A stretch of DNA of 64,000 bases, taken from Arthrobacter sp. MMS18-M83 (lineage in GTDB: Bacteria > Actinomycetota > Actinomycetes > Actinomycetales > Micrococcaceae). The stretch lies in the NCBI RefSeq assembly GCF_026683955.1, contig NZ_CP113343.1, positions 4,774,001-4,838,000 on the forward strand, written 5' to 3'. A model generated the notes under the pieces. It saw only the letters and a program-made list of their open reading frames with translations. It searched no databases and was not told the DNA's origin. A program made the translations under genes and the position numbers. This document shows, piece by piece, positions 2,802-63,475 of this stretch; positions within the stretch are counted from its first letter, which is position 1, and the number at the start of each line of letters is the position of its first letter.

Positions 2802-2879
2802 TCGCCAACACCTTCACCCCGCGGACACAGGTCCGCCGCCTCTGAATGCCCCCATGACGGCGCAGCGTCGCCACCCCTC

Positions 2880-3661: not shown

Positions 3662-3696
3662 GTGTCCTCCTCAAGGTCAATCGCCGTCATGATACG

Positions 3697-3728
3697 CCTA
3701 AGGCCTCCGCAGCTGCGGAGGCCTTAGG
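3697..3728 (-). terminator. Perfect 32-bp palindrome downstream of aspS
   Basis: Two 16-base arms (3697-3712 and 3713-3728) are exactly complementary with no spacer, giving a strong hairpin 17 bases after the aspS stop codon. No T-run follows on the minus strand, so termination is inferred from position and stem strength only. Confidence 0.6.
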
Positions 3729-3745
3729 TCTACTACTACGGCTTG

Positions 3746-46102: not shown

Positions 46103-47929
46103 TCATGGCGACGGTTTGAGAACCATCGCCGAGCCTCCCCCTCGCCTGACAGGCTCGGCGGCAGCGATCATGCGCCCGTCGGGTCTGAACTCGATCGCTG
46201 TTGCCGCACCGATCTCCGCGGCCGAGGTGAAGGCATCGCCTGATGGCGTGAACTGATGGCCATACGGCGTCAGTTGACTCCCGTATGCCGTGATGAAGTC
46301 CGGCTCGGCCGTGACCTTGGCGGTGTTCCGTTGCGAAGCACGCGGGGAAGCTATCGCGTCGGAAATGCTCATGCCCAGGTCAACCCTGTTCAGGATCGTC
46401 TGCAACACGGTGGTGATGATGGTCGATCCGCCGGGTGAGCCGAGGGCGAGGAACGGATCGCCGTCCTTGAGGATAATGGTCGGGGACATCGAGGAGCGCG
46501 GTCGCTTCCCCGGCTCGATCCGGTTCGGATCAGCCGCGTTGTAGACGGCCGAAAAATCGGTCAGCTCGTTGTTGAGCAGGAACCCGCGACCCGGCACCAC
46601 GATTCCGGATCCGCCGGTCTGCTCGATGGTAAGCGTGTACTCGACCACGTTTCCCCACTTGTCCGCGACCGTCATGTTGGTCGTGGAGATGTTTTCGGTG
46701 TCCTTCTCATCGGCGAGCGCCGCAGCGGAAGCCGGGCACACGCCGTCGTACCCGGATACGTCCCCCGGGGCGACGGGTTTCGTAGCCGCGTGCAGCGGAT
46801 CAATCTGGCAGGCGCGTTCCTTGCCGAAGAGCGGGTCGGTGAGCGCATCCGTAGGAACATCCACAAAGGCAGGGTCGCCAACGTACTTTCCACGGTCCGC
46901 GAACGCGAGCGCGCTCGCTTCGAGGTAGTGGTGCAGGGCGGCCGGCTTGGACATCTCGGAGAGATTTACGGTGTCCAGGATGTTGAGCGCCTCGCCCACG
47001 GTGGTGCCCCCGCTGCTTGACGGCGCCATGCCGTAGACATCAAGGCCGCGGTAGTCGACGTGGGTGGGCGCCTGGTCCAGGGGTTCGTACGCCGCCAGGT
47101 CTGCGGTGGTCATGTGCCCCACGGGAATCGGCAGCGTCGTGGTGGCAGTTTTCGGCGGCGCTTGGACGGTCGCCGCGATCTCGTCCGCGAGGGGGCCGCT
47201 GTAGAAGGCGCTGGTGCCTTGCTTCGCGAGGAGCCGATACGTCGCGGCGAGGTCGTGGTTCTGGAAGACGCTTCCGACGGCGGGTGCGTCGCCTCCCGGG
47301 AGGAACAGCTTGCTCGTGGAACTGAACGCCTCGAAGCGGAGCTTGTTGTCGAGTGTCTGCTGACGGAATGTCGGATCCACCACAAAGCCCCGGGTTGCGA
47401 CTTTGATGGCAGGCTGGAGGGCATCTCCAAGGCTCACCGTACCCCAGCGGTCCAGGGCGCGCTCCCAGGTTGCAGCTGTGCCGGGGACGCCTACGGAGAC
47501 GCCACTGGTGACAAGCTGTGGGGTGAAGTTATAGGGCTTGCCGGTCTTCGGGTCGATGAACGCGTCATGTGGCATCGCCGCCGGAGCGGTCTCGCGGCCG
47601 TCTATGGTGCCGATCTTTCCGGTCTTTGCGTCATAGAACACGAAGTATCCGCCACCGCCGATCCCGGCGCTGTACGGTTCGGTCACGCCAAGGGTTGCGG
47701 CCGCGGCGACGGCGGCGTCGGCTGCGTTGCCTCCCTCGCGGAGGACCTCGATCGCGGCGGCGGATGCCTCGGGGTCTACGGTGCTCACCGCGCCTCCATA
47801 TCCCGTGGCGGTGGCGGCCTTTTCAGTCTGGCGCGGATCGGCAAAGGCGGGACTGGCAACGGCACCGCTCGTCACGCTCAGGGCGAGAACTGCCGTCATG
47901 GTGGCCAGTCGAAGTCTTGGATGTGGCAT
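46103..47929 (-). CDS. ggt: Gamma-glutamyltransferase
   Basis: Secreted N-terminal-nucleophile enzyme that cleaves or transfers gamma-glutamyl groups, for example from glutathione-type peptides. 608 aa with a signal peptide (residues 1 to about 30, ending SPAFADP). Autocleavage and catalytic Thr416 lies in NISTTNMTVADKWGN, preceded by the large subunit (DPEASAAAIEVLREGGNAAD, GIGGGGYFVFYD) and followed by GGSGIVVPGRGFLLNNEL and RPRSSMSPTI. Complete. Divergent from the LacI gene; no sign that it belongs to that regulon. Actinobacteria use mycothiol, so the physiological donor may differ. Confidence 0.95.
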   Translation of the reverse strand: MPHPRLRLATMTAVLALSVTSGAVASPAFADPRQTEKAATATGYGGAVSTVDPEASAAAIEVLREGGNAADAAVAAAATLGVTEPYSAGIGGGGYFVFYDAKTGKIGTIDGRETAPAAMPHDAFIDPKTGKPYNFTPQLVTSGVSVGVPGTAATWERALDRWGTVSLGDALQPAIKVATRGFVVDPTFRQQTLDNKLRFEAFSSTSKLFLPGGDAPAVGSVFQNHDLAATYRLLAKQGTSAFYSGPLADEIAATVQAPPKTATTTLPIPVGHMTTADLAAYEPLDQAPTHVDYRGLDVYGMAPSSSGGTTVGEALNILDTVNLSEMSKPAALHHYLEASALAFADRGKYVGDPAFVDVPTDALTDPLFGKERACQIDPLHAATKPVAPGDVSGYDGVCPASAAALADEKDTENISTTNMTVADKWGNVVEYTLTIEQTGGSGIVVPGRGFLLNNELTDFSAVYNAADPNRIEPGKRPRSSMSPTIILKDGDPFLALGSPGGSTIITTVLQTILNRVDLGMSISDAIASPRASQRNTAKVTAEPDFITAYGSQLTPYGHQFTPSGDAFTSAAEIGAATAIEFRPDGRMIAAAEPVRRGGGSAMVLKPSP

Positions 47930-48048: not shown

Positions 48049-48078
48049 TTGACAAACTTGTACAAGGTTTTCCATACT
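48049..48078 (+). promoter_or_regulatory. Promoter of the sugar-acid operon with embedded LacI-type operator
   Basis: TTGACA (48049-48054) and CATACT (48073-48078) with an 18-base spacer, ending 37 bases before the LacI start. The spacer contains the perfect palindrome CTTGTACAAG (48057-48066), the even-symmetry form bound by LacI-family proteins. Position between the -35 and -10 boxes fits repression, including autoregulation. ACAAGGTTT recurs at 48085, just downstream. Confidence 0.65.
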
Positions 48079-48115
48079 TGCAGGACAAGGTTTCAACGAA
48101 GCAACTGGAGGACAG

Positions 48116-49105
48116 ATGTCGGCAAAACTCACGGATGTCGCAAAGCTGGCGGGAGTATCCCTGGCAACAGCGTCGCGCGCATTCGGAGATCCCGGACGCC
48201 TGGCCGCTGAGACGCGGCAGAAGGTCATGGCCGCGGCCGAGCAATTGGGTTACGACGTGCCCGGAGTGACTGGCAGCCGGACGTTCGGCGTCATCGTCCC
48301 AGACATCTCCAACGCAGTCTTCGCGGCCCTGATCAAGGCCATACAGGACCAGGCATGGCATGGCCGGCACCGGATGGTCTTGGCCGACACCGCGGAATCC
48401 TCCTCGCGGGAACGCGCCCACCTCGAGTCCTTCTCGACGGGGGTGGACGGCATCATCCTCTGCTCGCCCCGCTTGCCGTCAGAGCAGATCCACGAACTCG
48501 CCGGCAGCGCGCCGCTGGTGGTCATCAACGGCGAAGCCGAGCACGCGGCACGTGTGCTCATGGAAGCGGGCGAAGGAATCCGCCAGGCCATAGAACACCT
48601 CTACGCCCTTGGCCACCGCAAACTCGCCTACATCCCCGGACCGGCGTCGTCATGGGCAAACGGCCAGCGCAGCGCCGCAATCACCCGCTTCTGCGCTGAG
48701 TGGGGCATTGAACTCGTCACGGTCGGGAACCAGAACGCAACGGTCGACGGCGGACTGGCAGCAGCGGCGTCGGTAGTCGCCAGCGGTGCCACCGCAGTCA
48801 TCGCCTACAACGACCTCGTCGCCATCGGCATGCTCGCCGGGGCCCGGACCCTCGGCTACCACTGCCCGGAGGACATCAGCGTTGTCGGCATCGACGACCT
48901 TGACATCGCCGCCGCAGCCGAACCGGGACTCACCTCTGTCCGGGTACCCATTGACCGAAGCGGTGCCCTCAGCCTCGAACTCCTCCTTGAGCAGATGGCC
49001 GGAAAGCCGATCGCCACGGAAGCCGTCCACCTCAGCTCCCAACTCATCGTGCGTGGCTCCACGTTTGCCGCGCGCACCGCCGAGCAAGCCCTCCAGGGAA
49101 AGTAA
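48116..49105 (+). CDS. LacI family transcriptional regulator of the sugar-acid operon
   Basis: 329 aa: HTH MSAKLTDVAKLAGVSLATAS (1-20), hinge helix near residue 50 and a periplasmic-binding-like effector domain (RTFGVIVPDISNAVFAALI, AVIAYNDLVAIGMLAG, ISVVGIDDLDIAAAAEPG, LTSVRVPIDRSGALSLELL). First gene of the operon, two bases before the next ATG. Likely represses the operon until a pathway intermediate binds; which one is unknown. Confidence 0.92.
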   Translation: MSAKLTDVAKLAGVSLATASRAFGDPGRLAAETRQKVMAAAEQLGYDVPGVTGSRTFGVIVPDISNAVFAALIKAIQDQAWHGRHRMVLADTAESSSRERAHLESFSTGVDGIILCSPRLPSEQIHELAGSAPLVVINGEAEHAARVLMEAGEGIRQAIEHLYALGHRKLAYIPGPASSWANGQRSAAITRFCAEWGIELVTVGNQNATVDGGLAAAASVVASGATAVIAYNDLVAIGMLAGARTLGYHCPEDISVVGIDDLDIAAAAEPGLTSVRVPIDRSGALSLELLLEQMAGKPIATEAVHLSSQLIVRGSTFAARTAEQALQGK

Positions 49106-49107
49106 CC

Positions 49108-50088
49108 ATGAGAATAGTCATCGCAGACCCCAATCTGATGCCCCAGCGGTCCACCTTCGAGGCCGCCCTTCCAGAGGGATCCCTCACCTCCTGGCACGAT
49201 AGCTGGAACGAACACGCCGTCCTGACCGACCTCAAGGACGCCGACGTCTATGTGGGTCCACGCTTCACCGAGGCCATGGGCGCAGCCGCCGGCAACTTGC
49301 GCCTGGTCCACGTGGGAGGTGCCGGTTACGACGGCATCGACGCCGATGCTTTGCCCGCCGGGGCGGTCTGCGCCAACGCCTTCCACCACGAAAGCTCCAT
49401 CGCCGAACACGTCGCCGCGGTACTGGTAGCCCTGCGCCGCAACCTGATCGCCCAGGACGCGGCTCTCCGGAGCGGCGTCTGGTCTTCCTCCGTTTACTCC
49501 CCCGAGATCCGCCAGCCCGAAACCCTTCGCGGGGCCGTGGTGACATTCCTCGGGTTCGGACACATCGGCGGCGCGGCATGGGCGCTCCTCAAGGCTTTCG
49601 GCGCTGAAGGCATCGCTATTACCCGCAGCGGCAGCGTGGACGCCCAGGCCAACTCCCTGCGCTGGGCCGGCACTACCGAACGGCTTGGCGAGGCACTCAG
49701 TGAATCGGACATCCTGGTGGTCAGCATCCCGCTCTCTGAGCAGACCACCGGCATCATCAGCGCCGCTGAACTCGACGACCTTGGCCCGGACGGATTGCTC
49801 GTCAACATTGCCCGTGGACCTGTCGTTGATGAAAGCGCCCTCTACGAAGCCCTGAAAGACCGGCGGATCGCAGGGGCCGCAATCGACGTCTGGTACCAAT
49901 ACCCGGGGACCGACGGCCGCGGCGAACCGTCCGCCCTTCCGTTCGGCCGGCTGGACAACATCATCATGACCCCGCACTCCTCCGGCGTCACCGCGGAAAC
50001 CTTCCGCAGCCGCGCGCTCGAGATCGCCGAAAACATCACCCGCCTTTCCAAAAATGAACCACTGAAGAATGTAGTGATTTCCCGATGA
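49108..50088 (+). CDS. D-isomer-specific 2-hydroxyacid dehydrogenase
   Basis: NAD(P)-dependent reductase of 2-keto acids, 326 aa. Nucleotide motif [20 protein letters not shown], catalytic Arg in [17 protein letters not shown], and catalytic His in MTPHSSGVT. Resembles the GhrA/GhrB/ketoaldonate reductase side of the family more than phosphoglycerate dehydrogenase. In this operon a 2-ketoaldonate reductase is a sensible role (for example 2-keto-L-gulonate to L-idonate), but that is inference. Stop overlaps the next start (ATGA). Confidence 0.88.
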
Positions 50089-51302
50089 CCCGAAAAATCG
50101 TCGACGTCGACGTCCTGGTAACCAGCCCCAGCCGCAACTTTGTCACGCTCAAGATCACCACCGACGACGGCCTGGTCGGTTGGGGTGACGCCACCCTGAA
50201 CGGCCGCGAACTTTCTGTTGCGAGCTACCTCCGCGATCACCTCGGCCCGGCCCTGGTGGGCAGGGACGCGGACCGCATCGAAGACACCTGGCAATACTTT
50301 TACAAAGGGGCCTACTGGCGCCGCGGGCCTGTGACCATGGCCGCAATCGGCGCCATCGACCTCGCCCTCTGGGACATCAAAGGCAAGGCCCTCGGCGTTC
50401 CGGTCTACCAACTCCTTGGCGGCGCAGCCCGCGACAAGATCCTCACCTACACGCACGCCACCGGATGGGACCTGCCTGAGCTGTTGGACTCGATAGACCA
50501 GCGCCGCGAGCAAGGCTTCCGCGCCGTCCGGGCACAGTCGGGCGTCCCTGGCCTGTCGAAGGTCTACGGCGTCACGAAGGGCGCCGCGAGCTACGAACCC
50601 GCCGGACGCGGCGCCGGACCTGTCGAAGAAGACTGGGACACCTCGGCCTACCTGCGCCACGCACCAAAGATCCTCTCCGCAGTCCGTGAACACGTCGGCC
50701 CGGAGCTCAAATTGCTCCACGACGTCCACCACCGCCTCAACCCCACCGAGGCTGCCCGGTTGGCCCGCTCCTTGGAAGACGTGGACCTGTTCTGGCTGGA
50801 AGACGTCACCCCCGCCGAGAACCAGCGCCTGCTCCGTACGCTGCGCCAGCAGACCACGATCCCGCTGGCCATCGGCGAAGTCTTCAACACCGTCTGGGAC
50901 GCCGAGTTGCTCATCACTGAACGGCTCATCGACTACATCCGCACCGCCGTCGTGCACGCCGGAGGCATCTCCCACGTCCGCAAGATCCTGGCGCTGGCCG
51001 AGGTCTACCAGATCAAGGGCGCCCCGCACGGGCCTTCGGATGTCTCCCCCATCAACCTCTCGGCATCGCTGCACCTTGGCCTGGCCACGAGCAACTTCGC
51101 CATCCAGGAATACATGGGCTACGACCCCATGGTGTCCGAGGTCTTCCAGTCCAGTTTCCGCTTCGAAGACGGCTACCTGCACCCTGGCGACGAGCCTGGA
51201 CTGGGCGTCCACGTGGACGAAGAAGCCGCTGCCCGCTTCCCGTACGCGCAGGCCTACCTGCCCATCGCCCGGGAACTCGACGGCTCCATGAAGGACTGGT
51301 GA
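50085..51302 (+). CDS. manD: Enolase-superfamily dehydratase, ManD/RspA type (mannonate/gluconate dehydratase)
   Basis: Removes water from D-mannonate (or D-gluconate) to give 2-keto-3-deoxy-D-gluconate. 405 aa. Metal ligands Asp213, Glu239 and Glu265 ([23 protein letters not shown]), with Arg149, Tyr161 and His215 in the positions of the acid/base residues of the family. The loop HGPSD carries Pro where, as I recall, high-efficiency mannonate dehydratases have Ala; Pro is linked to low-efficiency members. Overlaps the gene before by four bases. Confidence 0.9.
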
Positions 51303-51305
51303 ACC

Positions 51306-52829
51306 ATGGCCACGTCAAGCCTCCCGCCGCTGGGCGCCGAAACACCTGGAATCGTGTGCCGAACGGAAGCTCCTGCCCCGGGGATCGTGCACCTCGGCCT
51401 GGGCAACTTCCACCGCGCCCATCAGGCGGTCTACACGGAAGCCGCCATGGCCGCCCATGGCGGCGACTGGGGAATCATCGGAATCTCCAGCCGCTCCAGC
51501 GCCATCACGGATGCGATGCACGCGCAGGACATGCTCTACACCGTCGTCGAGATCTCGCCCGACGGATCGACGTTCTCGACGCCACGCGTGCACACGGATG
51601 CCTTCGTTGCGGCACAGGAACCGCAGCGCGTTGTGGCGGCCATTGGCGCCGAGACCACGCGCATCGTATCGCTGACCGTCACCGAAAGCGGCTACACCTA
51701 CAGTCCCGCAACCGGGTCCCTCAACGTCGCCGATCCTGACGTCCAGCACGACCTCGCCAACGGCCCGGTCCCCCGCACCCCGATCGGGCAGATCGTCCGC
51801 GGCCTCCAGCAGCGCGCACGGACCCACGGCAAGCCGCTGACAGTCCTCAGCTGCGACAACCTCGAGGACAACGGACACCACACTCAACGGCTCGTCCGCG
51901 AATTCGTTTCATTGCTGCCTGCCTCTGAGGCCGCGGAAACGCTGCCATGGATCGACGCCAACGTAACGTTCCCTTCGTCCATGGTGGACAGGATCGTGCC
52001 CGCCACGACAAACCACTACCGCAGGCTCGTCGCCGAGCAGCTCGGCTATGCGGACCAGATCCCCGTGCCCGCCGAGCCATTCACCATGTGGATCCTCGAG
52101 GACAACTTTATAGCCGGCCGCCCTGCCTGGGAGGCCGGAGGCGCGATCTTCACGGACGACGTCGCGGCATACGAGCAACTCAAAGTCAGGCTCCTCAACG
52201 GCACCCATTCGCTCATCGCCTACCTGGGAGCGTTGTCGGGTGCAGCCACCATTCCCGACGCCACTGCCATGGACTACGTCGAGGCGGCAGCCCGCCGCGT
52301 CCTCCGCGATGAGTACCTGCCGAGTGTCACCGTGCCCGGCGCCGTCGACGTCGACGCCTACGTGGAGCAGCTCTTCTCGCGCTGGCGCAACTCGGCATTG
52401 GGGCACCGGAGCAGCCAAGTGGGCAGCGATGGTTCGGTCAAACTGCGCCAACGGATCCCGATTCCAGCATTGGAAATGCTCGACGCCGGCGCCATGCCCC
52501 ACTACCTCGCCCTCACCACGGCGGCGTACCTGTCATGCATCGCACCCCTGCAGGGTTTCGACCCCGGCAACCACGCCAACGAGATGCAAGACCCCGCCCG
52601 GGAAACACTCCAAAAACTCGCAGCAGCATCCACCTCCGGACGCGACCTTGCCGCCAAGGTGCTTGGCGAGCACCACCTCCTGGGTGACGAACTCGCGGTG
52701 CGTGAAGACTTCATCGACCGCACCGGCGAGCTGATCGACATCATTCACGGGCAGGGCCCCCTCGCAGCCGCCCAGGCGGCATCCGAGTCAACCTCGCTTC
52801 TCCCCGCACAGAACCGGAGCATTCGATGA
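51306..52829 (+). CDS. uxuB: Mannitol dehydrogenase family oxidoreductase (D-mannonate oxidoreductase-like)
   Basis: Long-chain polyol dehydrogenase family, 507 aa; likely interconverts D-fructuronate and D-mannonate. N-terminal Rossmann motif GIVHLGLGNFHRAHQAVY and active-site series KVRLLNGTHSLIAYLGAL, which holds the conserved Lys, Asn and His. The symbol is by function and context; family members also act on tagaturonate, mannitol or arabinitol. Starts three bases after the manD stop. Confidence 0.85.
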   Translation: MATSSLPPLGAETPGIVCRTEAPAPGIVHLGLGNFHRAHQAVYTEAAMAAHGGDWGIIGISSRSSAITDAMHAQDMLYTVVEISPDGSTFSTPRVHTDAFVAAQEPQRVVAAIGAETTRIVSLTVTESGYTYSPATGSLNVADPDVQHDLANGPVPRTPIGQIVRGLQQRARTHGKPLTVLSCDNLEDNGHHTQRLVREFVSLLPASEAAETLPWIDANVTFPSSMVDRIVPATTNHYRRLVAEQLGYADQIPVPAEPFTMWILEDNFIAGRPAWEAGGAIFTDDVAAYEQLKVRLLNGTHSLIAYLGALSGAATIPDATAMDYVEAAARRVLRDEYLPSVTVPGAVDVDAYVEQLFSRWRNSALGHRSSQVGSDGSVKLRQRIPIPALEMLDAGAMPHYLALTTAAYLSCIAPLQGFDPGNHANEMQDPARETLQKLAAASTSGRDLAAKVLGEHHLLGDELAVREDFIDRTGELIDIIHGQGPLAAAQAASESTSLLPAQNRSIR

Positions 52830-53878
52830 CCACACAAGCAGTCCGCCACGCCGAAAGACCTTCACTACCGCTCACCACGGAGGCAGCCGTCCTGCACGGT
52901 GCGGGCGACATCCGCATCGAACAGAAAACCGTGAAGGCCCTGGGACCGAACGATGTCCTCGTGGAAATGCGTTCGGGCGGAATCTGCGGCTCGGACATGC
53001 ACTACTTCGCTGACGGCCGCAACGGCACCAACATCCTCCGCCAGCCCACCGTCCTGGGCCACGAGGGAGCGGGCGTTGTCATCGCGGCCGGTGAGGCGGC
53101 CAGCATTGCCGCAGGGACCGCCGTCGTGATTGAACCCGCGTTGCCCTGCCGGAAGTGCCCCACGTGCCTCTCCGGACGATACAACCTGTGTCCTACGGGG
53201 ACGTGCTTCGGTTCCCCGCCCACAGACGGACTGTTCGCCCGCCACGTGGTGGTTCCCGAGACCGCCCTTCACGAACTTCCGGACAACATCCCGGCCGACA
53301 TCGGGGCAGCAATCGAGCCGCTCGCCGTCGCGGTCTGGGCGGTTGAACGGGCCCAGGTCGAGGCCGGGCACCGAGTACTGATCACGGGTGCCGGCCCGAT
53401 CGGGCTACTCGTCGCGCAAGTCGTGGCATCCCGCGGAGCGTCCGAGATCATCGTGACGGACGTCAACGACGATCGGCTGGCTGTTGCGGCGGCCTTCGGG
53501 GCGACGAAGACCATCAACACGGCCAACGAAGCCCTTGGCCTGAGGGACCTGGATCGCCTGATCGAATGCTCCGGCAACAGCAAGGCGCTGGCCGACGGCA
53601 TCCAGACCTTGGCCCCCGCAGCCCGGGCCACAGTGGTGGGCCAGGCCCGTCCCACCGTGGACGGCATCCCACTCGGATTCCTCCAACGCTACGAAATCGA
53701 CCTGGTGACCGCATTCCGCTACGCCAACGCATTCCCGACGGCGATCCAGCTCGCCTCATCGGGGGTTGTGGACCTCCGGTCCATCATCACCTCCACGTTT
53801 GACCTCACCAACGCCGCGGCCGCTCTCACGGCCCCAGTGACAGACCCCACCAACCTCAAAGTCCTCATCACCTACTGA
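52826..53878 (+). CDS. Zinc-dependent alcohol dehydrogenase, L-idonate/L-gulonate 5-dehydrogenase-like
   Basis: 350 aa medium-chain dehydrogenase. Catalytic zinc Cys in GGICGSDMHYF, GHEGAG with the zinc His, structural zinc cluster CRKCPTCLSGRYNLC, and NAD motif ITGAGPIGLLVAQ. The DMHYF segment and overall match put it with sorbitol/L-idonate dehydrogenases. In this setting it would oxidise L-gulonate to D-fructuronate or L-idonate to 5-keto-D-gluconate. Overlaps the preceding gene (ATGA). Confidence 0.88.
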   Translation: MTTQAVRHAERPSLPLTTEAAVLHGAGDIRIEQKTVKALGPNDVLVEMRSGGICGSDMHYFADGRNGTNILRQPTVLGHEGAGVVIAAGEAASIAAGTAVVIEPALPCRKCPTCLSGRYNLCPTGTCFGSPPTDGLFARHVVVPETALHELPDNIPADIGAAIEPLAVAVWAVERAQVEAGHRVLITGAGPIGLLVAQVVASRGASEIIVTDVNDDRLAVAAAFGATKTINTANEALGLRDLDRLIECSGNSKALADGIQTLAPAARATVVGQARPTVDGIPLGFLQRYEIDLVTAFRYANAFPTAIQLASSGVVDLRSIITSTFDLTNAAAALTAPVTDPTNLKVLITY

Positions 53879-53926
53879 CTCGGCCCACCTACAGGCCAGC
53901 GGGCATCCATTCAAAGGAGTATGGAA

Positions 53927-55303
53927 ATGACCACAGCAGCAAACCTCCCACCCACGCCGGTGGACCAAAGCAAGGTCCGGAAGGCCGCCGTCGCCGGACT
54001 TATCGGCACCACCCTGGAACTCTACGATTTCGTCATCTATGGAACGGCGTCGGCGCTGGTCTTCAGCAAGCTCTTCTTCCCCAACATCTCGCCCGCCGCG
54101 GCACTTCTCGCCAGCTTCACCACTTTCGCCGTCGGATTCCTGTTCCGGCCCCTCGGCGGGATTTTCTTCTCCCACTTCGGCGACCGGCTTGGCCGGAAAT
54201 GGGTCCTCGTCGTCACCCTGCTCCTGATGGGCGGGGCCACGCTGGCCATCGGGCTCCTTCCGACGTTCGGCCAGATCGGCATCTTTGCCCCGGTCCTGCT
54301 TTGTGTCTGCCGTGCAGCCCAGGGCTTCGGCGCCGGTGCCGAACAATCGGGCGGCGCAACCCTGCTCACAGAGTCCGCAGCCCCCGGAACCCGAGGCAAG
54401 CTGGCTTCCCTCATCATGGTTGGTGCAGCCGCCGGAACGGCGCTCGGCGCACTCGTGTGGATCGCAGCGCAGTCCCTGGCACCCAACGACATGCTCACGT
54501 GGGGCTGGAGGCTCGTCTTCCTCTCCAGCATCTTCGTTACCATCGCCGCGCTGGTCATCCGGCGCAAGCTCGACGAATCACCGGTCTTCGAGGAGATCAA
54601 GCAGGCCCGCACGGAACCCCCGGCACCCCTGAGGGAGGTTGCCAAGTATGGCAAGGCCAACGTCCTGCGCGTCATCCTCATGAACCTCGGCGTCAGCACC
54701 CAGTCCTACACCATCCAGGTGTTCATGGCCTCCTACCTCATCACCGTGATCGGAACGGACCCGAAGTTCATTCCTCCCGTGCTCCTCATCGGTTCACTTT
54801 GCGGCGGCATCGCGGCCGTTTCCTTCGGAATCCTGTCCGACAAGATCGGGCGCCGGCGCGTCGTCTCCCTCATCACCGGGGCGCTCATCCTCTTCCCCGC
54901 CCCCGCATTCCTCCTACTGACCACAGGGTCGCCGGTAGCCATCGTGTTGGTGATCGTGGTCGGCTTCGTCCTGGCCTGCCAAGGCGTGGTGGGCGTGCAC
55001 ATGAGCTACTTCCCTGAGATCTTCGGCAGCCGCTACCGGTACGCAGGAGTCACCTTGGGCCGCGAGTTCTCCTCCATCATTGGCGGAGGTATCGCCCCCA
55101 TGATCTGCGCTGCGCTGCTGGGCATGTTCAGCAACTCCTGGATTCCTGTAGCGATCTACATGTCCGCAACCATGCTCATCAGCTTCATCGCCACCCGGAT
55201 GTCCCCTGAGACCCTGAACCGCGACCTCACGGACCCCGAGGACGCCGCGCACAGCAAAAGCGGGGTTATCCCGGTGACCGCCGAAGCGCAGCACGTCCAG
55301 TAA
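53927..55303 (+). CDS. MFS transporter, metabolite:H+ symporter type
   Basis: Probable uptake system for the operon's substrate. 458 aa, 12 membrane segments. MFS signature between TM2 and TM3 (GDRLGRKWVLVVTLLLMGG) and its repeat (DKIGRRRVVSLITG). N-terminus KAAVAGLIGTTLELYDFVIY is typical of the shikimate/ProP-like subfamily. ATG 53927 lies seven bases after AAAGGAG; ATG 53921 is too close. Confidence 0.9.
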   Translation: MTTAANLPPTPVDQSKVRKAAVAGLIGTTLELYDFVIYGTASALVFSKLFFPNISPAAALLASFTTFAVGFLFRPLGGIFFSHFGDRLGRKWVLVVTLLLMGGATLAIGLLPTFGQIGIFAPVLLCVCRAAQGFGAGAEQSGGATLLTESAAPGTRGKLASLIMVGAAAGTALGALVWIAAQSLAPNDMLTWGWRLVFLSSIFVTIAALVIRRKLDESPVFEEIKQARTEPPAPLREVAKYGKANVLRVILMNLGVSTQSYTIQVFMASYLITVIGTDPKFIPPVLLIGSLCGGIAAVSFGILSDKIGRRRVVSLITGALILFPAPAFLLLTTGSPVAIVLVIVVGFVLACQGVVGVHMSYFPEIFGSRYRYAGVTLGREFSSIIGGGIAPMICAALLGMFSNSWIPVAIYMSATMLISFIATRMSPETLNRDLTDPEDAAHSKSGVIPVTAEAQHVQ

Positions 55304-55375
55304 CACCCGAAGGTCCGACGGCGGCACGCGCCGCCGTCGGAACCCCGCCAACCAAAAACCGCACGAAGGACTTCC

Positions 55376-56050
55376 ATGCCCCGCCTCGAAACCCCGGACA
55401 CCGTCTCCCGCCCGGCACCATCCGCCATCCTCCGCGACACCAGGGTCGTGGCGGTGCTGCGGGCCCGGCACGCGAAGGACTACACCCCCGTCATCGAGGC
55501 CCTCCGGGATGGCGGCGTGCTCAGTATCGAATTGACTCTGAGCACACCGGGAGTGTTCGACGAGCTTCCCCGACTGCAAGAGCGGTTCGGCAACTCCGTT
55601 GAACTCGGCGTCGGCACCGTGACCACTGCTGCCGAGGCCGAAACGGCACTCGACCTGGGTGCCGCCTACATCGTCACGCCCATCACTGAACCGGATGTCA
55701 TCACCGTGTGCACAATGCGCGGCGTGCCCGTCTTCCCGGGTGGGCTGACCCCCACCGAACTCCACGCCGGTTGGAAGCTTGGTGCCACCGCCGTCAAAGT
55801 CTTCCCAGCCTCGACGGTCGGTCCTGGCTACGTATCCCAGTTGCGCGGCCCCTTTCCGGACATCCAGGTGGTTCCGTCCGGCGGGGTCGACATCGAGGAC
55901 GTGCCGGCATGGATCCGCGCCGGCGCATTGGCAGTCAGCCTCGGAGGGCCACTTCTTGGCGACGCGTTCAAAGTCGGGAGCCTGACCGAGTTGACCGCAC
56001 GTGCGCGACGGGTCCGCAACCTCGTTGATGAGGCACGTGGCGAGCGATGA
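55376..56050 (+). CDS. eda: KDPG/KHG aldolase
   Basis: Splits 2-keto-3-deoxy-6-phosphogluconate to pyruvate and glyceraldehyde 3-phosphate. 224 aa TIM barrel with Schiff-base Lys141 in GATAVKVFPAS and catalytic Glu52 in LSIELTL; PSGGVDIEDVPAW near the C-terminus. GAAGGA precedes ATG 55376. Stop overlaps the kinase start (ATGA). Confidence 0.93.
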   Translation: MPRLETPDTVSRPAPSAILRDTRVVAVLRARHAKDYTPVIEALRDGGVLSIELTLSTPGVFDELPRLQERFGNSVELGVGTVTTAAEAETALDLGAAYIVTPITEPDVITVCTMRGVPVFPGGLTPTELHAGWKLGATAVKVFPASTVGPGYVSQLRGPFPDIQVVPSGGVDIEDVPAWIRAGALAVSLGGPLLGDAFKVGSLTELTARARRVRNLVDEARGER

Positions 56051-57000
56051 ACAGCAAGGCATACGTCGTGACCCTCGGCGAAACCATGGCGCTCATGTCA
56101 TCGGACAAGGCCGGCCCGTTGGCCCATGCCTCCACGATGAGCCTCGGCATCGGAGGGTCTGAGTCCAATGTCGCCATCGGCCTGCAACGCTTGGGCGTCC
56201 AAAGTGTCTGGTGCGGCCGCATCGGTGCGGATTCCCTCGGTCAGCTTGTGGAGCGGGAGATCCGCGCCGAGGGCGTCGACGTCCGCGTGACTGTTGACGA
56301 CGAGGCGCCGACCGGCCTGATGATCAAGGAACGCCGGACCCCCTCAGCCCAGAAGGTCGCCTACTACCGGTCCGGCAGCGCGGGCTCACGGATTGCCCCC
56401 GACGACGTCGACGAACGGCTGATCGCCGGGGCCGCCCTGCTCCACGTCAGCGGAATAACGCCGGCGCTCTCTTCCCAAGCTGCTTCCACGCTCCGGTACG
56501 CGATCGCAGCAGCCAAAGCATCGGGCGTTCCGGTCTCCTTCGACCTGAACTACCGCAGCAAGCTCTGGGCAGCCGAAACCGCCGGAAGCGCCTACCGCGA
56601 GATCATCCCGCGCGCGGACATCGTGTTCGCGGGACTTGAGGAAGCCCGGCTCGCCGTCGGACCCGCCGCCGACGCCGAAGAAGCCGCCAGGCGCATTGCC
56701 GCCATGGGCCCAAGCCAAGTGGTTATCAAGTTGGGCGCCGAAGGAGCCCTGGCTTGCATTGAAAGCCAGGTCTTCCGGCAGGAAGCACTGGCCATCGAAG
56801 CCCTCGACACCGTGGGCGCCGGCGACGCGTTCGTGGCCGGCTATTTGGCCGAATTTATCGAAGGACGCCAGCCCCGGGAGCGGCTTCAAACTGCCGTAAG
56901 CACAGGGGCATTTGTTTGCCTGGTACCCGGCGACTGGGAAGGGCTCCCGCGCCGCGAAGAATTGCGGCTCCTGGGCAACCATGAACCGGTCAGCCGATGA
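56047..57000 (+). CDS. kdgK: 2-keto-3-deoxygluconate kinase, PfkB family
   Basis: Phosphorylates KDG to KDPG with ATP. 317 aa. PfkB signatures: GGSESNVAIGLQRLG at the N-terminus and DTVGAGDAFVAGYL, with the catalytic Asp, at the C-terminus. SFDLNYRSKLW is typical of KDG kinases. Translationally coupled to eda upstream and to the DUF4862 gene downstream by ATGA overlaps. Confidence 0.93.
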   Translation: MNSKAYVVTLGETMALMSSDKAGPLAHASTMSLGIGGSESNVAIGLQRLGVQSVWCGRIGADSLGQLVEREIRAEGVDVRVTVDDEAPTGLMIKERRTPSAQKVAYYRSGSAGSRIAPDDVDERLIAGAALLHVSGITPALSSQAASTLRYAIAAAKASGVPVSFDLNYRSKLWAAETAGSAYREIIPRADIVFAGLEEARLAVGPAADAEEAARRIAAMGPSQVVIKLGAEGALACIESQVFRQEALAIEALDTVGAGDAFVAGYLAEFIEGRQPRERLQTAVSTGAFVCLVPGDWEGLPRREELRLLGNHEPVSR

Positions 57001-58028
57001 CCGGGTTTTTCGTGGGAGCGTATGCCGCCGCTCCAAGCCTGACCGGTTGGAACCCATCGACTGAAGGAAGATTCCTGAAATCCGTTGTGGAACTGGAAGG
57101 CGTTGCCGGCCTCGAAGTCCCGTTCACGGGAGCGCTGCACAAAGACGACGAAGCCTGGTTCCTGCAGCAATTGCCTGACAAAGCGGACTTTGTGGTGACG
57201 ACCATTCCCGGGACCATGGCCAGGCTCGGTTCAGACCCGTGCTTCGGGTTGGCCTCAACCTCCACAGCCGGGCGCCGGGCAGCGATCGACTTCATTCGCG
57301 ATGCGCTGAAGGCCGTCGGAAGGCTCAACGAGCGCGTAGGCCGGCCCGCGGTTGCTGCGCTTGAGATCCACTCAGCCCCGTGGGCAGATGGGCAACGTGC
57401 CTCCACGGCCGCCCTGTCCGAGTCGTTGGCCGAAATTTCGCAGTGGGAGTGGAACGGTGCACGGCTTGCGCTCGAACACTGTGACGCATTTGTCCATGGC
57501 CAGGCACCGGCCAAGGGGTTCCTTGCCCTCGAGGATGAGGCCGAGACCGTGAACCGTGTGGTCGAGTCAACCGGCCGGCCCATGGGAATTGCCATCAATT
57601 GGGGGCGTTCAGTCCTTGAGCAACGCAGACCGGATGCAGCCCTGGAGCACATCAATTTCCTTCGCGAGGGTGACCTGCTCGGAGGTTTCGTGCTCTCGGG
57701 CTGCGCGGGCGTTGATACCCGCTACGGCGCGGCCTGGGCCGACGTGCATGTCCCGCCCGCGCCCGCCGCGGCAAGCGATGCGAATCCAACCGAACCGGCT
57801 TTGGCTACCGGCCTCGACGTCCTCGAGGTCGCGTCCCTCCTGACCGTGGAACGCATGGAGGAATGCCTGCGCGCCGCAGGCCCCGGGGCCGGCAACGACT
57901 TTCGAGGAATCAAGGTGGCCGCCCCTCCGCACGCAACCGTGGAGCAGCGCGTGTCCGTCATTTCAAAGACCCTCGATCTGGCCCGGCAAGCGAGCGGGCA
58001 GGACCTACGGAGCGGGACAGCCCCGTAG
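56997..58028 (+). CDS. DUF4862 family protein, unknown function
   Basis: 343 aa, cytoplasmic, no signal peptide. Sequence features: FVGAYAAAPSL at the N-terminus, GLEVPFTGALHKDDEAWF, IHSAPWADGQRAS, GARLALEHCDAFV and PMGIAINWGRSV. The strand/helix pattern and the EVPF, ALEHCD and INWGRS segments suggest a TIM barrel like sugar-phosphate isomerases. Its coupling to kdgK implies a role in the same sugar-acid route, perhaps an isomerase or epimerase for a non-canonical substrate. That role is inference. Confidence 0.82.
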   Translation: MTGFFVGAYAAAPSLTGWNPSTEGRFLKSVVELEGVAGLEVPFTGALHKDDEAWFLQQLPDKADFVVTTIPGTMARLGSDPCFGLASTSTAGRRAAIDFIRDALKAVGRLNERVGRPAVAALEIHSAPWADGQRASTAALSESLAEISQWEWNGARLALEHCDAFVHGQAPAKGFLALEDEAETVNRVVESTGRPMGIAINWGRSVLEQRRPDAALEHINFLREGDLLGGFVLSGCAGVDTRYGAAWADVHVPPAPAAASDANPTEPALATGLDVLEVASLLTVERMEECLRAAGPGAGNDFRGIKVAAPPHATVEQRVSVISKTLDLARQASGQDLRSGTAP

Positions 58029-58059
58029 CGGGAGGGCCGAAAGACCCTCCCGCTACGGG
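58022..58059 (+). terminator. Perfect terminator hairpin closing the sugar-acid operon
   Basis: 15-base perfect stem (58022-58036 with 58045-58059) and an 8-base loop. It overlaps the DUF4862 stop codon, so it probably folds as transcription leaves the gene. Confidence 0.85.
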
Positions 58060-58599: not shown

Positions 58600-58892
58600 G
58601 AAGACCTCCGGAATTCTCTTCTTGATTGCTCATTGGATATTTCACGGACTGGGTTGCGGTTGCCTCACCGCGCGCTCCGGTATCGGAACTCCCGCACCAA
58701 CGTAGGCACAGAAGCCGCTGAATATCACCCCGCGGACGGGCGCTCGGGCCTTTGTTCACCCGCCATTCATCTTGTCAGGGGACTTTCGGCCGAACCGTAA
58801 CTTTCTGGGCGCTCGGGACGATTACCCTAGAGGGGCGTGTGTCTCGCAAGCTGCATTGCAGTTTCCGCAGGTTCAAGAAAGCGAGGGGAGCT

Positions 58893-60191
58893 GTGCCGGA
58901 TGGCTCTATCACCGGAGAGAACGATGCTCTTGTAGCAGGTCGATACAGGCTGGGAAGCCTGATCGGCCGCGGAGCGACGGCGTCCGTGTACCAGGCACAG
59001 GATGAGAGACTGGGCCGCGACGTGGCGCTGAAACTCTTTGCTCCGCTATTGGGAGGCCCGGACGAGCTCGCCCGGCACGAAAACGAAATGCGGCTCTTGG
59101 CGACATTCAATCATCCCTCGCTCGTCACTCTCTTGGACGCGGGTACCGACCATCGGGACCCGGAGCATGCCCGGACATTCCTCACCATGGAACTGATTCA
59201 CGGTCCGGACCTGTATGCCAAGTTGCGGGACCGACCGCTGACGACACAGGATGTAGCCAACATAGGAGCGGATCTGGCTTCGGCCCTGGAATACGTCCAT
59301 GGGCGCGGGATCATCCACCGCGATATCAAACCCGCGAATGTCCTCCTGCCTGACGCCCCCGTAGGATCCCCCATCCGGGCCAAGCTCACCGACTTCGGAA
59401 TCGCGCGCATCATCGAGGGGACGCGCTTGACCGCAACAGGCACCATGGTGGGAACCGCCGCCTACCTGAGCCCGGAACAGGCCACCGGCTCTGCCCTCGG
59501 ACCGGCTAGCGATATCTACTCCCTCGGACTTCTCCTCCTCGAATGCCTGACCGGAAAGCTCGAATACCCGGGAACCAGCGTGGAGTCGGCCGTTGCGAGG
59601 CTCCATCGCCCACCCCGTGTGCCGGAGGCCCTGGGGACACGGTGGGTTGACCTCCTCACCGCCATGACATCGACTGAGCCTTCCACACGGCCCGGCGCAC
59701 TAGAGGTTGAGCAAGCACTTCGGAGCGCCGTCAGTTCCGGCGTCCCTGCGGCGACGCCCGTTGGCGCCAGCGGAGCCACGCAGACCCTTCCCCGTATGCC
59801 CGACCGTCCGCCCCGGACAGCCAAGGCAACCATCCAGATGCGGGTGCGGCCCGCGGCAACGGCGGGCGAAATCGCGGGCGGGGGCGACGTCGTCGGGCCG
59901 GCCTTAAGAAACGGGCGCCAATGGCGAGGGAAGCCGGTAAGCCGCGCGCGCAGACCGGCGTGGGCTGTGGGCGCCGCACTTCTTACCGCCGCCCTGGTGA
60001 TCGTTGGTGTGAGCGCCTTCCAGCCCCCTGCTCCCGCCGCCCCGGACCGGTCCGTTTCGGCAACGCCGACGCCCAGCACCCCTACGCCAACGCCCTCACC
60101 GAGCGTTGAGGCCTCGACGCCGGTTGCGCCTGTTCCGGTGGCACCGGCCCCGGGGCGGCACAAGGGCAACGGCAAGGGAAATGGCGGTTAG
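58893..60191 (+). CDS. Membrane Ser/Thr protein kinase without PASTA repeats
   Basis: 432 aa from GTG 58893 with GAGGGGAG upstream; the open frame upstream has no ribosome site. Hanks kinase domain 18-280: G-loop IGRGATASVY, Lys47 (ALKLF), catalytic loop HRDIKPANVLL (Asp144), DFG 167-169, activation segment GTMVGTAAYLSPEQATG. One membrane helix at 356-377, then only a short Pro/Thr/Ser tail outside, without sensor repeats. Substrates unknown. Confidence 0.93.
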   Translation: MPDGSITGENDALVAGRYRLGSLIGRGATASVYQAQDERLGRDVALKLFAPLLGGPDELARHENEMRLLATFNHPSLVTLLDAGTDHRDPEHARTFLTMELIHGPDLYAKLRDRPLTTQDVANIGADLASALEYVHGRGIIHRDIKPANVLLPDAPVGSPIRAKLTDFGIARIIEGTRLTATGTMVGTAAYLSPEQATGSALGPASDIYSLGLLLLECLTGKLEYPGTSVESAVARLHRPPRVPEALGTRWVDLLTAMTSTEPSTRPGALEVEQALRSAVSSGVPAATPVGASGATQTLPRMPDRPPRTAKATIQMRVRPAATAGEIAGGGDVVGPALRNGRQWRGKPVSRARRPAWAVGAALLTAALVIVGVSAFQPPAPAAPDRSVSATPTPSTPTPTPSPSVEASTPVAPVPVAPAPGRHKGNGKGNGG

Positions 60192-61809: not shown

Positions 61810-63117
61810 CTACCTTCCAATGAAGATGCCGTTCTTCCGCCGCGCCAGCACGTAGAACACGATGCTCAGTGCGGACAGGACGGCCACATAGACCGGGAAG
61901 ATCCACGATGCATTCACGGACTGAAGCCAGACCAGCAGGTAAGAAGCCGTGCCGCCGAAGAGGGCGACGCCGATTCCGTAGCCGAGTGCAGTTCCGGCGC
62001 CACGGCAGGACTTCGGCATCAGGGAACTTGTGACGACGTTGTAGAGGGTCATGTTCAGGACCAGGACCACCGAGCCGCCCAGGAGGACCGCAGCGAATCC
62101 GCCGATGCCTGGACGGACGTACATCAGCATCAAGAAGACCGAAGGAATGGACAGCGCACGAGTGATCAGGAACCACTTCGAAATCGACCGACCATCGGCG
62201 AGTTTGCCGATCACCAGGCTGCCGACAACCAGCACCACACCAAGAATGGTGGTGAGGGCGAAGACGGCGGTCGCGTCTTCCTTGAAGCCGCTGCGGGCCG
62301 CAGTGGGAAGTCCTGTGTTCCAGGCGTAGTTGTAGGCTTGGGCCGCTCCAACAACGAACGTAATCGCCAACACGCTTAGCCAATGCTTGCCCACCCCACC
62401 CCAGACCGCCTTCGACGAGGAGTTTTGGGCAAGCTCTTCCGGCTTCATGGTCTCCGGAAGGGTCCGGCGCAGGTAGACCACGACGAAACCAAACAGTGCA
62501 CCCACGATGAAGGGGACACGCCAACCCCAGTCAGCCATGACGGCACCACTCAGCATCAGGCTGCACAAATAGCTGACCAGCGAAGCAAGCAGGATGCCCG
62601 AGTTGACGAAGAAGGAGATGATGCCTGCGACGAACCCTTCGCGCCCCTCCGGCACCAGCTCGACGGCGTGGGCGGTGGAAAGGGGTGCCTCAACACCCGT
62701 GGAGATGCCCTGCACAACGCGGCAGACCAGGAGGATGACGCCGGCAGCGCCGCCGATCTGCTGGTACGTAGGGCACAAAGCGATGATCAGCGTAGTGATC
62801 GCCATCATCATGATGGACCAAAGCATCACTTTTCGACGGCCGATTCTATCCGCGAAGGTACCGAGCAGGACGCCGCCAAGCGGGCGGAACGCGAAGCCGA
62901 CGGCGAAGACCGCCAGGGCGTTGAGGGTTGCGGCGGTGGGGTCCTGCGAGGGGAAGAACTTTGGCCCGATGAATGCCGACAGGAGTCCGAAGACCATCCA
63001 GTCATACCACTCAAGGGTGTTCCCGAGTCCGAGGCCCAGCAGCCCACGTCGGATTTCCGGAGAGAGCCGGGATTTCCGGGCGCTCTCCGGGCCAGTCTTG
63101 ACGACAGTGTCAGTCAT
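61810..63117 (-). CDS. MFS transporter, metabolite:H+ symporter type
   Basis: 435 aa from ATG 63117 with GGAGG upstream. Twelve membrane segments; NTLEWYDWMVFGLLSAFIG at the N-terminus and the loop ADRIGRRKVMLWSIMMM mark the ProP/shikimate-type subfamily. Followed closely by the deaminase gene and divergent from an XRE regulator, which suggests uptake of a nucleoside-like or amino-pyrimidine compound. The substrate is not evident from sequence. Confidence 0.88.
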   Translation of the reverse strand: MTDTVVKTGPESARKSRLSPEIRRGLLGLGLGNTLEWYDWMVFGLLSAFIGPKFFPSQDPTAATLNALAVFAVGFAFRPLGGVLLGTFADRIGRRKVMLWSIMMMAITTLIIALCPTYQQIGGAAGVILLVCRVVQGISTGVEAPLSTAHAVELVPEGREGFVAGIISFFVNSGILLASLVSYLCSLMLSGAVMADWGWRVPFIVGALFGFVVVYLRRTLPETMKPEELAQNSSSKAVWGGVGKHWLSVLAITFVVGAAQAYNYAWNTGLPTAARSGFKEDATAVFALTTILGVVLVVGSLVIGKLADGRSISKWFLITRALSIPSVFLMLMYVRPGIGGFAAVLLGGSVVLVLNMTLYNVVTSSLMPKSCRGAGTALGYGIGVALFGGTASYLLVWLQSVNASWIFPVYVAVLSALSIVFYVLARRKNGIFIGR

Positions 63118-63475
63118 GATTCTTTCCTTCCTCCACACCTTCGCGGTGCGTGAGGGTACGGATCACCATTGCCGCCCGGAGGGTGGCAAGTGATCGAAAC
63201 TATCATTTTGGCTTGGTTCGGCAGGGCCGCACCAGCTCACCTCATGGGAGGAGAGTCAGCCCAGATAGCTACGCGTGCCTCTTCGTAGCGCTTGAATGCA
63301 AACGACGACATCCAGCCCGGCGACAAGGAGCTTGGACGGTGCGCTTGGATATCGCAGCATCAGCATGGAGAACACGAAGATGGACGTAGGGCGGGCTGGA
63401 CCTTCCGCCAGAAGGATGAAAGCGCCCACGTTTCCGATCGTGCAGCAAACTTCCCCACGTGATGCGACTCACATA

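What the first reader, a model, noticed from the sequence alone, without database searches (positions are those of the whole stretch)
48049..58059. Nine-gene LacI-controlled hexonate operon without a uronate isomerase
The genes give a full path to KDG, KDPG and pyruvate plus glyceraldehyde 3-phosphate: ManD dehydratase, mannonate oxidoreductase, KDG kinase, KDPG aldolase. There is no UxaC-type isomerase and no canonical UxuA, but there is a Zn L-idonate/L-gulonate dehydrogenase-like enzyme and a 2-hydroxyacid dehydrogenase. This fits L-gulonate (via fructuronate and mannonate), L-idonate, or a ketoaldonate as substrate. Known L-gulonate and L-idonate pathways use similar enzymes, but this gene set with DUF4862 may be a distinct version.
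Basis: partly seen in the sequence, partly recalled or inferred. Interest (0 to 1): 0.75.

Follow-up and report, generated by a model that had tools for sequence, protein, structure and literature searches.

The report
Arthrobacter hexonate operon with DUF4862
A soil bacterium carries a self-contained set of genes that most likely turns L-gulonate or a close relative into pyruvate by a known kind of pathway, plus an uncharacterised protein (DUF4862) that recurs beside pyruvate-releasing sugar-acid enzymes and may act on their substrates.

Summary
The nine-gene LacI-led operon is real (48116-58028). ManD passes its curated cut-off; the dehydrogenases, kinase and aldolase fit D-fructuronate -> D-mannonate -> KDG -> KDPG -> pyruvate + G3P, but their exact substrates cannot be read from sequence. 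The genome has no uxuA and one uxaC, about 0.95 Mb away, with its own LacI, reductase and second ManD and a different candidate operator (CAACCGGTTG versus TTGTACAA). So glucuronate has its own locus; here a Zn-dehydrogenase stands where the isomerase would be. That is the logic of the Haemophilus L-gulonate pathway (GulD-UxuB-UxuA-KdgK-KdgA), with ManD for UxuA: a new variant of a known kind. The eight-gene core occurs in 17 of 150 sampled genomes of the genus. DUF4862 is optional: present in 7 of the 17, absent in 10, two of which keep fragments. It is predicted to be a xylose-isomerase-like barrel. A pyruvate-releasing enzyme gene (KDPG-type aldolase, NanA-type lyase, FAA hydrolase) lies within 6 kb of DUF4862 in 44 of 113 loci (10 of them this operon), including sialidase clusters. 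Most novel reading, unproven: an anomerase/ring-opening enzyme for 2-keto-3-deoxy sugar acids.

The parts
48049..48078 (+). promoter: TTGACA (-35, 48049-48054), 18-base spacer, CATACT (-10, 48073-48078)
   Evidence: read; TTGACA...TTGTACAA...CATACT kept upstream of LacI in 6 of 6 upstream regions compared
48054..48070 (.). candidate LacI operator, imperfect palindrome AAACTTGTACAAGGTTT inside the promoter spacer; core TTGTACAA 48058-48065
   Evidence: one site, matched on both strands; chance expectation 0.03; core kept in 6 of 6, but a palindrome of 16 bases or more is not kept in 3 of 6
48116..49105 (+). LacI-family repressor, first gene of the operon
   Evidence: Pfam LacI + Peripla_BP_3
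49108..50088 (+). D-isomer-specific 2-hydroxyacid dehydrogenase; substrate unknown, perhaps a 2-ketoaldonate reductase (inference)
   Evidence: Pfam 2-Hacid_dh_C/2-Hacid_dh; no NCBIfam cut-off reached; best solved relative a glyoxylate reductase
50085..51302 (+). D-mannonate dehydratase ManD, RspA-like (HGPSD motif)
   Evidence: NCBIfam NF043051 655 bits vs cut-off 550; PDB 4e4f, 4il2 best; 57% to E. coli K-12 RspA
51306..52829 (+). D-fructuronate/D-mannonate 5-oxidoreductase-like enzyme (UxuB/YdfI type)
   Evidence: Pfam Mannitol_dh; PDB 4im7 YdfI best, E 2e-85; fructuronate reductase model 310 bits, below its cut-off 603
52826..53878 (+). Zn-dependent medium-chain dehydrogenase, probable L-gulonate (or L-idonate) 5-dehydrogenase
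   Evidence: Pfam ADH_N + ADH_zinc_N; zinc-site motifs present; best NCBIfam L-idonate 5-dehydrogenase 212 bits, below cut-off 469; closest PDB ketose reductase/sorbitol dehydrogenase
53921..55303 (+). MFS transporter of the metabolite/H+ symporter (MHS) kind, probable importer of the sugar acid
   Evidence: NCBIfam TIGR00883 363.6 bits, below cut-off 443
55376..56050 (+). KDPG aldolase
   Evidence: Pfam Aldolase 115.9 bits vs 27.8; TIGR01182 150.8 vs cut-off 156.05
56047..57000 (+). PfkB-family kinase, probable KDG kinase
   Evidence: best NCBIfam models KDG/KDGal kinases, below cut-off
56997..58028 (+). DUF4862 protein, predicted xylose-isomerase-like TIM barrel; optional last gene
   Evidence: Pfam PF16154 305 bits; AlphaFold2 pLDDT 90.6; structure comparison; absent in 10 of 17 operons

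Best explanation
A LacI-repressed operon for taking up and degrading L-gulonate (or a close C5-epimeric hexonate) without an isomerase. Proposed steps: the MHS transporter imports the acid; the Zn-dehydrogenase oxidises C5 of L-gulonate to D-fructuronate; the UxuB/YdfI-like enzyme reduces D-fructuronate to D-mannonate; ManD dehydrates it to KDG; the PfkB kinase and KDPG aldolase give pyruvate and glyceraldehyde 3-phosphate. The 2-hydroxyacid dehydrogenase probably feeds in a 2-ketoaldonate (inference). DUF4862 is an optional helper, perhaps speeding a ring-opening or anomer change of KDG or KDPG (inference). Shown here: gene content, conservation, promoter/operator footprint, a separate uxaC locus, no uxuA found. 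Inferred: every substrate and the order of steps.
For: ManD over its curated cut-off; UxuB-like protein closest to solved YdfI, ManD closest to 4e4f and RspA 4il2; Zn-dehydrogenase with zinc motifs and L-idonate 5-dehydrogenase as best family model. The genome has a separate LacI-uxaC-UxuB-ManD locus for glucuronate with different palindromes, so this second set is not needed for it. No uxuA found. Core conserved in 17 of 150 genus genomes. The same step order was shown experimentally in H. influenzae (PMC5788505, passages read).
Against: The Zn-dehydrogenase is only about 30% identical to RspB and its nearest solved relatives are polyol/ketose dehydrogenases; it scores far under the L-idonate 5-dehydrogenase cut-off. 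UxuB-like, kinase and transporter are also below their specific cut-offs, the aldolase slightly. The 2-hydroxyacid dehydrogenase has no role in the Haemophilus pathway. No inducer or activity is known.
Confidence: 0.5

Rival explanations
1. The substrate is L-idonate or 2-keto-L-gulonate: the 2-hydroxyacid dehydrogenase reduces the 2-keto acid to L-idonate, the Zn-dehydrogenase makes 5-keto-D-gluconate, the UxuB-like enzyme reduces it to D-gluconate, and the RspA-type ManD acts as a gluconate dehydratase giving KDG.
For: Explains the 2-hydroxyacid dehydrogenase; best NCBIfam model of the Zn-dehydrogenase is L-idonate 5-dehydrogenase; the window ManD has the Pro motif HGPSD of RspA instead of the HGATD seen in three other ManDs printed (that the Pro type is the low-efficiency, gluconate-tolerant class is recalled, not from a call).
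Against: No short-chain 5-ketogluconate reductase in the operon; the L-idonate model is far under cut-off; ManD matches the D-mannonate equivalog; the second ManD, in the uxaC locus, also has the Pro motif, so the motif does not single out gluconate.
Confidence: 0.25
2. The operon serves D-mannonate or D-fructuronate itself, or is a second glucuronate branch using the distant uxaC.
For: ManD and a fructuronate-reductase-like enzyme are present; a uxaC exists in the genome.
Against: The uxaC locus has its own reductase and ManD, and no TTGTACAA in the 19.5 kb read around it; the Zn-dehydrogenase would be idle.
Confidence: 0.1
3. The Zn-dehydrogenase acts on a polyol or another sugar acid, giving a different pathway that also ends in KDG.
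For: Closest solved relatives are a ketose reductase and sorbitol dehydrogenases; the UxuB-like protein also scores with D-arabinitol 4-dehydrogenase, below cut-off.
Against: The ManD/kinase/KDPG aldolase part points to C6 sugar acids as intermediates.
Confidence: 0.1
4. DUF4862 is an aldose-ketose isomerase that replaces UxaC in this operon, so the substrate is a uronate after all.
For: Predicted xylose-isomerase-like barrel; it lies in an operon lacking UxaC.
Against: Absent from 10 of 17 conserved operons, with fragments in two; elsewhere it also sits in clusters with sialidase/NanA-type lyase, DGOK-type kinase and aldolase, or FAA hydrolase, where such an isomerase has no evident place.
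Confidence: 0.05

Closest known systems
L-gulonate pathway of Haemophilus influenzae (GulPQM-GulD-UxuB-UxuA-KdgK-KdgA; PMC5788505, passages read)
   Same: isomerase-free logic: C5 dehydrogenase, fructuronate reductase, mannonate dehydratase, KDG kinase, KDPG aldolase
   Different: here ManD (enolase superfamily) in place of UxuA, an MFS in place of the TRAP transporter, a LacI regulator first in the operon, an added 2-hydroxyacid dehydrogenase and DUF4862
RspA/RspB/YdfI (solved as 4il2, 4ilk, 4im7; that these are E. coli proteins studied for L-gulonate/L-idonate pathways by Wichelecki et al. 2014 is recalled, paper not held)
   Same: the same three enzyme families: ManD, Zn-dehydrogenase, YdfI-type reductase
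   Different: Zn-dehydrogenase only about 30% identical to K-12 RspB; here in one operon with kinase, aldolase, transporter and LacI
UxaC-UxuB-ManD locus of the same genome (L006)
   Same: paralogous reductase (37%) and ManD (59%)
   Different: has UxaC and other palindromes; no Zn-dehydrogenase seen by eye among the ORFs of 220 aa or more listed there
Sialic-acid mutarotase NanM and YhcH/NanQ (NanM as Neu5Ac mutarotase: PMC7315737, passages; YhcH/NanQ as anomerase recalled)
   Same: proposed chemistry only: anomer change of a 2-keto-3-deoxy sugar acid before a pyruvate-releasing lyase
   Different: unrelated folds (recalled); no activity of DUF4862 is known

Membership tests
L-gulonate degradation pathway (GulD-UxuB-dehydratase-KdgK-KdgA) | D-mannonate dehydratase | tested here: met
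   NCBIfam NF043051, 655 vs 550 bits
L-gulonate degradation pathway (GulD-UxuB-dehydratase-KdgK-KdgA) | Zn-dependent L-gulonate 5-dehydrogenase | tested here: inconclusive
   right superfamily and zinc motifs; no specific family cut-off reached
L-gulonate degradation pathway (GulD-UxuB-dehydratase-KdgK-KdgA) | D-fructuronate reductase | tested here: inconclusive
   Mannitol_dh family, best PDB YdfI; 310 vs cut-off 603 bits
L-gulonate degradation pathway (GulD-UxuB-dehydratase-KdgK-KdgA) | KDG kinase and KDPG aldolase | tested here: inconclusive
   Pfam aldolase and PfkB over cut-off; NCBIfam aldolase model just below, KDG kinase models well below cut-off
L-gulonate degradation pathway (GulD-UxuB-dehydratase-KdgK-KdgA) | growth on and induction by L-gulonate | not testable with these tools
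   needs culture and assays
D-glucuronate isomerase (UxaC) pathway | uxaC in the operon or under its operator | tested here: not met
   uxaC in another locus, no TTGTACAA in the 19.5 kb read around it
E. coli-type L-idonate (IdnD/IdnO) pathway (gene set recalled) | IdnD equivalog and short-chain 5-ketogluconate reductase in the operon | tested here: not met
   IdnD model 212 vs 469 bits; no short-chain dehydrogenase family among the nine genes
ManD subgroup of the enolase superfamily | equivalog score | tested here: met
   near full-length alignment to solved ManDs
DUF4862 (PF16154) | score over Pfam gathering cut-off | tested here: met
   305 vs 25 bits
xylose-isomerase-like TIM barrels | fold over most of the length | tested here: met
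xylose-isomerase-like TIM barrels | metal site and isomerase activity | not tested
   model coordinates not inspected; profile search of solved sequences gave only chance-level hits, E 1.3 and 1.6

The most novel reading that the evidence does not exclude
DUF4862 is a new family of anomerases/ring-opening enzymes (a xylose-isomerase-like barrel) for 2-keto-3-deoxy sugar acids such as KDG, KDPG, KDGal and sialic acid, readying the substrate for pyruvate-releasing lyases. Being a helper for a reaction that also runs by itself, it is easily lost, as seen in close relatives of this operon.
Probability: 0.2. Interest if true: 0.65.

Novelty: new variant of a known kind. Interest (0 to 1): 0.42.

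Why it matters
It shows a soil-type actinobacterium with two parallel ManD-based sugar-acid loci, one with UxaC and one with a dehydrogenase entry, in which ManD would stand in for the missing UxuA. It also gives a testable hypothesis for DUF4862: no paper in the held library contains 'DUF4862' or 'PF16154'. If DUF4862 proves to act on 2-keto-3-deoxy sugar acids, it would fill a gap in sialic-acid and Entner-Doudoroff-type sugar-acid pathways.

Tried and rejected
Rejected: DUF4862 as an essential part of the pathway (absent in 10 of 17 operons). Rejected: the operon as part of the uxaC regulon. The exact string ACTTGTACAAG occurs at two other sites in the genome: one starts 28 bases upstream of the ATG of an ORF that looks like release factor prfA (by eye and recall; L003), the other (C1:197798) was not examined. 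The reversed-pattern control gave the same counts (3 forward, 1 reverse), so copy number says nothing about a regulon. DUF4862 as the missing uronate isomerase was dropped after the neighbourhood survey. ManD was searched in viral contigs and not found. Two look-ups by recalled DOI for the Wichelecki 2014 papers found nothing held. A search for gulonate + Arthrobacter + mannonate found no paper. The E. coli DUF4862 gene that rings in the control was not located.

Limits of the DUF4862 neighbourhood count: the partner families were picked after seeing neighbourhoods, their profiles were built from genes of these same loci, the 6-kb limit was also chosen afterwards (at 2 kb it is 27 of 113), some loci are cut by contig ends, and the background density comes from one genome with Pfam models. 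69 of 113 loci show no such partner within 6 kb, including the whole Rheinheimera/Alishewanella/Arsukibacterium group (neighbours read at L014 are HI0933-like, subtilase, TrkH and sensor-kinase genes). Three pairs of the 113 look like the same genomes (L008/L117, L010/L120, L011/L121, by equal contig lengths). YhcH (PF04074) is found in none of the 150 genus genomes, while 2 of 14 control genomes rang: compatible with DUF4862 doing that job in sialic-acid clusters, no proof.
Full report
What is there. The region holds nine + strand genes: four neighbouring pairs overlap by 4 bases, the other gaps are 2, 3, 42 and 72 bases. They are LacI, D-2-hydroxyacid dehydrogenase, ManD, mannitol-dehydrogenase-family reductase, Zn-dependent dehydrogenase, MHS-type MFS transporter, KDPG aldolase, PfkB kinase and DUF4862 (families, finer models). 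ManD alone passes a function-specific equivalog cut-off (655 vs 550 bits). The aldolase is just under its NCBIfam subfamily cut-off (150.8 vs 156.05). The reductase (310 vs 603), Zn-dehydrogenase (212 vs 469 for L-idonate 5-dehydrogenase), transporter (363.6 vs 443.45) and kinase (229 vs 440) fall below theirs, so their substrates are not fixed by sequence.

Regulation. A TTGACA / 18-base spacer / CATACT promoter holds the palindrome AAACTTGTACAAGGTTT in its spacer. TTGACA, TTGTACAA and CATACT are kept upstream of LacI in all six upstream regions compared (window, L008, L009, L010, L011, L119). The wider palindrome is weaker: a near-perfect one of 16 bases or more was found in only three of the six (window, L010, L119). 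LacI is the first gene, so the operon is probably autoregulated (inference).

The rest of the genome. UxuA (PF03786) is not found, while the same search rang in 5 of 14 control genomes. One UxaC is found. Its neighbourhood (L006) contains LacI, UxaC (glucuronate isomerase model 558.8 vs 387 bits), a second UxuB-like reductase (below its cut-offs) and a second ManD (689 vs 550 bits). That locus has CAACCGGTTG palindromes upstream of uxaC (around 9801) and upstream of ManD (around 12786), another strong palindrome upstream of uxaC (9763), and no TTGTACAA. The window set therefore looks like a parallel route, not the glucuronate route.

Pathway. An isomerase-free route in which a C5 dehydrogenase turns L-gulonate into D-fructuronate, then reductase, dehydratase, KDG kinase and KDPG aldolase, was shown with enzymology, knockouts, expression and labelling in Haemophilus influenzae (PMC5788505, passages read). 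The window has candidates for the same five steps with ManD for UxuA. Relations to solved proteins agree: ManD with 4e4f and RspA 4il2 (57% to K-12 RspA) and the reductase with YdfI 4im7. The Zn-dehydrogenase is the weak point: about 30% to K-12 RspB, and nearer to ketose reductase/sorbitol dehydrogenases among solved structures. L-idonate or 2-keto-L-gulonate stays a live rival, partly because of the unexplained 2-hydroxyacid dehydrogenase.

ManD motif. The window ManD and its paralogue have HGPSD and HGPTD, and RspA has HGPSD, whereas three solved ManDs printed (3thu, 4fi4, 4gme) have HGATD. From recall only, the Pro type is the low-efficiency class; both ManDs of this genome have it, so it does not decide the substrate.

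Conservation. Of 150 genomes drawn from the genus, 17 (own included) encode a Zn-dehydrogenase at 81% identity or more. In the other 16 the neighbours from LacI to the kinase are in the same order: 6 loci (in L122 LacI lies beyond the stretch taken, in four it is cut by the edge) and 10 (in L185, and for single genes in L178 and L182, only partial matches). DUF4862 occurs in 31 of the 150, but in only 7 of the 17, in this operon in each of them; the other 10 have none in the genome search. Of those 10, L176 keeps a 25-residue start fragment and L177 two short pieces; in L185 something like its first residues is seen by eye only. So DUF4862 was lost at least in the closest relatives and is dispensable for keeping the core.

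DUF4862. No paper in the held library names it. The AlphaFold2 model is confident (pLDDT 90.6, pTM 0.90) and is closest to xylose/rhamnose-isomerase-like TIM barrels. Across 20 diverse members, 36 columns are invariant, among them E40, E160-H161-C162-D163, N201, R204, S205, S234, D249 and H251; by the predicted secondary structure several of these lie at the C-terminal ends of barrel strands, where active sites of such barrels lie (inference; coordinates not inspected).

DUF4862 neighbourhoods. In 44 of 113 loci (80, 33; three pairs probably identical) a gene for a KDPG-type aldolase, DHDPS/NanA-family lyase or FAA hydrolase lies within 6 kb; leaving out the 10 loci of this operon, 34 of 103. 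This genome's 19 such genes in 5.11 Mb would give about 0.05 per locus; the choice of families and limit was made afterwards (see Tried and rejected). The 44 are: window-type operon 10; genus clusters with ROK kinase, NanA-family lyase and SBP_bac_5 ABC transporter 17, of which 16 also have the sialidase-family cluster next to DUF4862 (families and PDB relatives read only in L123, where the lyase is closest to 5c54 'Dihydrodipicolinate synthase/N-acetylneuraminate lyase' and the BNR protein to solved sialidases; other DUF4862 paralogues in the genus, such as L132 and L139, lack these genes); FAA hydrolase neighbours 7 (families read in L145, and L013); marine Microbulbifer/Pseudomaricurvus clusters with MLE dehydratase, DGOK-type kinase and aldolase 5 (families read in L037); Colwellia/Shewanella clusters 4 (families read in the related locus L034, itself at 8.7 kb and not counted: NagA over its cut-off, the NanA model below); Subtercola 1. 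These are about six kinds of setting, not 44 independent events. 69 of 113 show no such partner. The shared theme is release of pyruvate from 2-keto acids, which suggests, without proving, action on the 2-keto acid itself. A preference of sialate lyase for the alpha-anomer is stated in PMC7315737 (passages), so an anomerase role would make sense. YhcH (PF04074) was found in none of the 150 genus genomes.

Verdict. A known kind of sugar-acid operon in an unusual composition, with a good but unproven L-gulonate reading, and a worthwhile lead on DUF4862.

Noticed in passing
window 46103-47929 (-): A long minus-strand ORF (608 aa) just upstream of the operon that looks like a gamma-glutamyltranspeptidase (by eye; no family search run on it).
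   Followed up: no
window 58752-60191 (+): A serine/threonine protein kinase-like ORF downstream of the operon (by eye); a close relative of it follows the sugar kinase gene within about 200 bases in two DUF4862-less operons (L177, L185).
   Followed up: no
window 61810-63138 (-): A second MFS transporter-like ORF near the operon (by eye).
   Followed up: no
L006:4466-8604: Next to the uxaC locus lie genes that look like IolE/Gfo-Idh-type sugar or inositol catabolism (by eye), with a transposase-like ORF at 2564-4174.
   Followed up: no
L123 (and 16 similar genus loci): A DUF4862 paralogue lies divergent from a sialic-acid-type cluster (NanA-family lyase, ROK kinase, ABC transporter; sialidase-like gene in 16 of 17); no YhcH-family gene was found in the 150 genus genomes sampled.
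   Followed up: partly
L145, L143, L141, L144, L147: A DUF4862 gene ends a conserved cluster with GntR regulator, amidase, amino-acid-type ABC transporter and FAA hydrolase (order, families read in L145); pathway unknown.
   Followed up: no
L182 near 10388: The sugar kinase gene of this operon is interrupted by what looks like a sequencing-adapter string (motif recalled), so this assembly has an artefact there.
   Followed up: no
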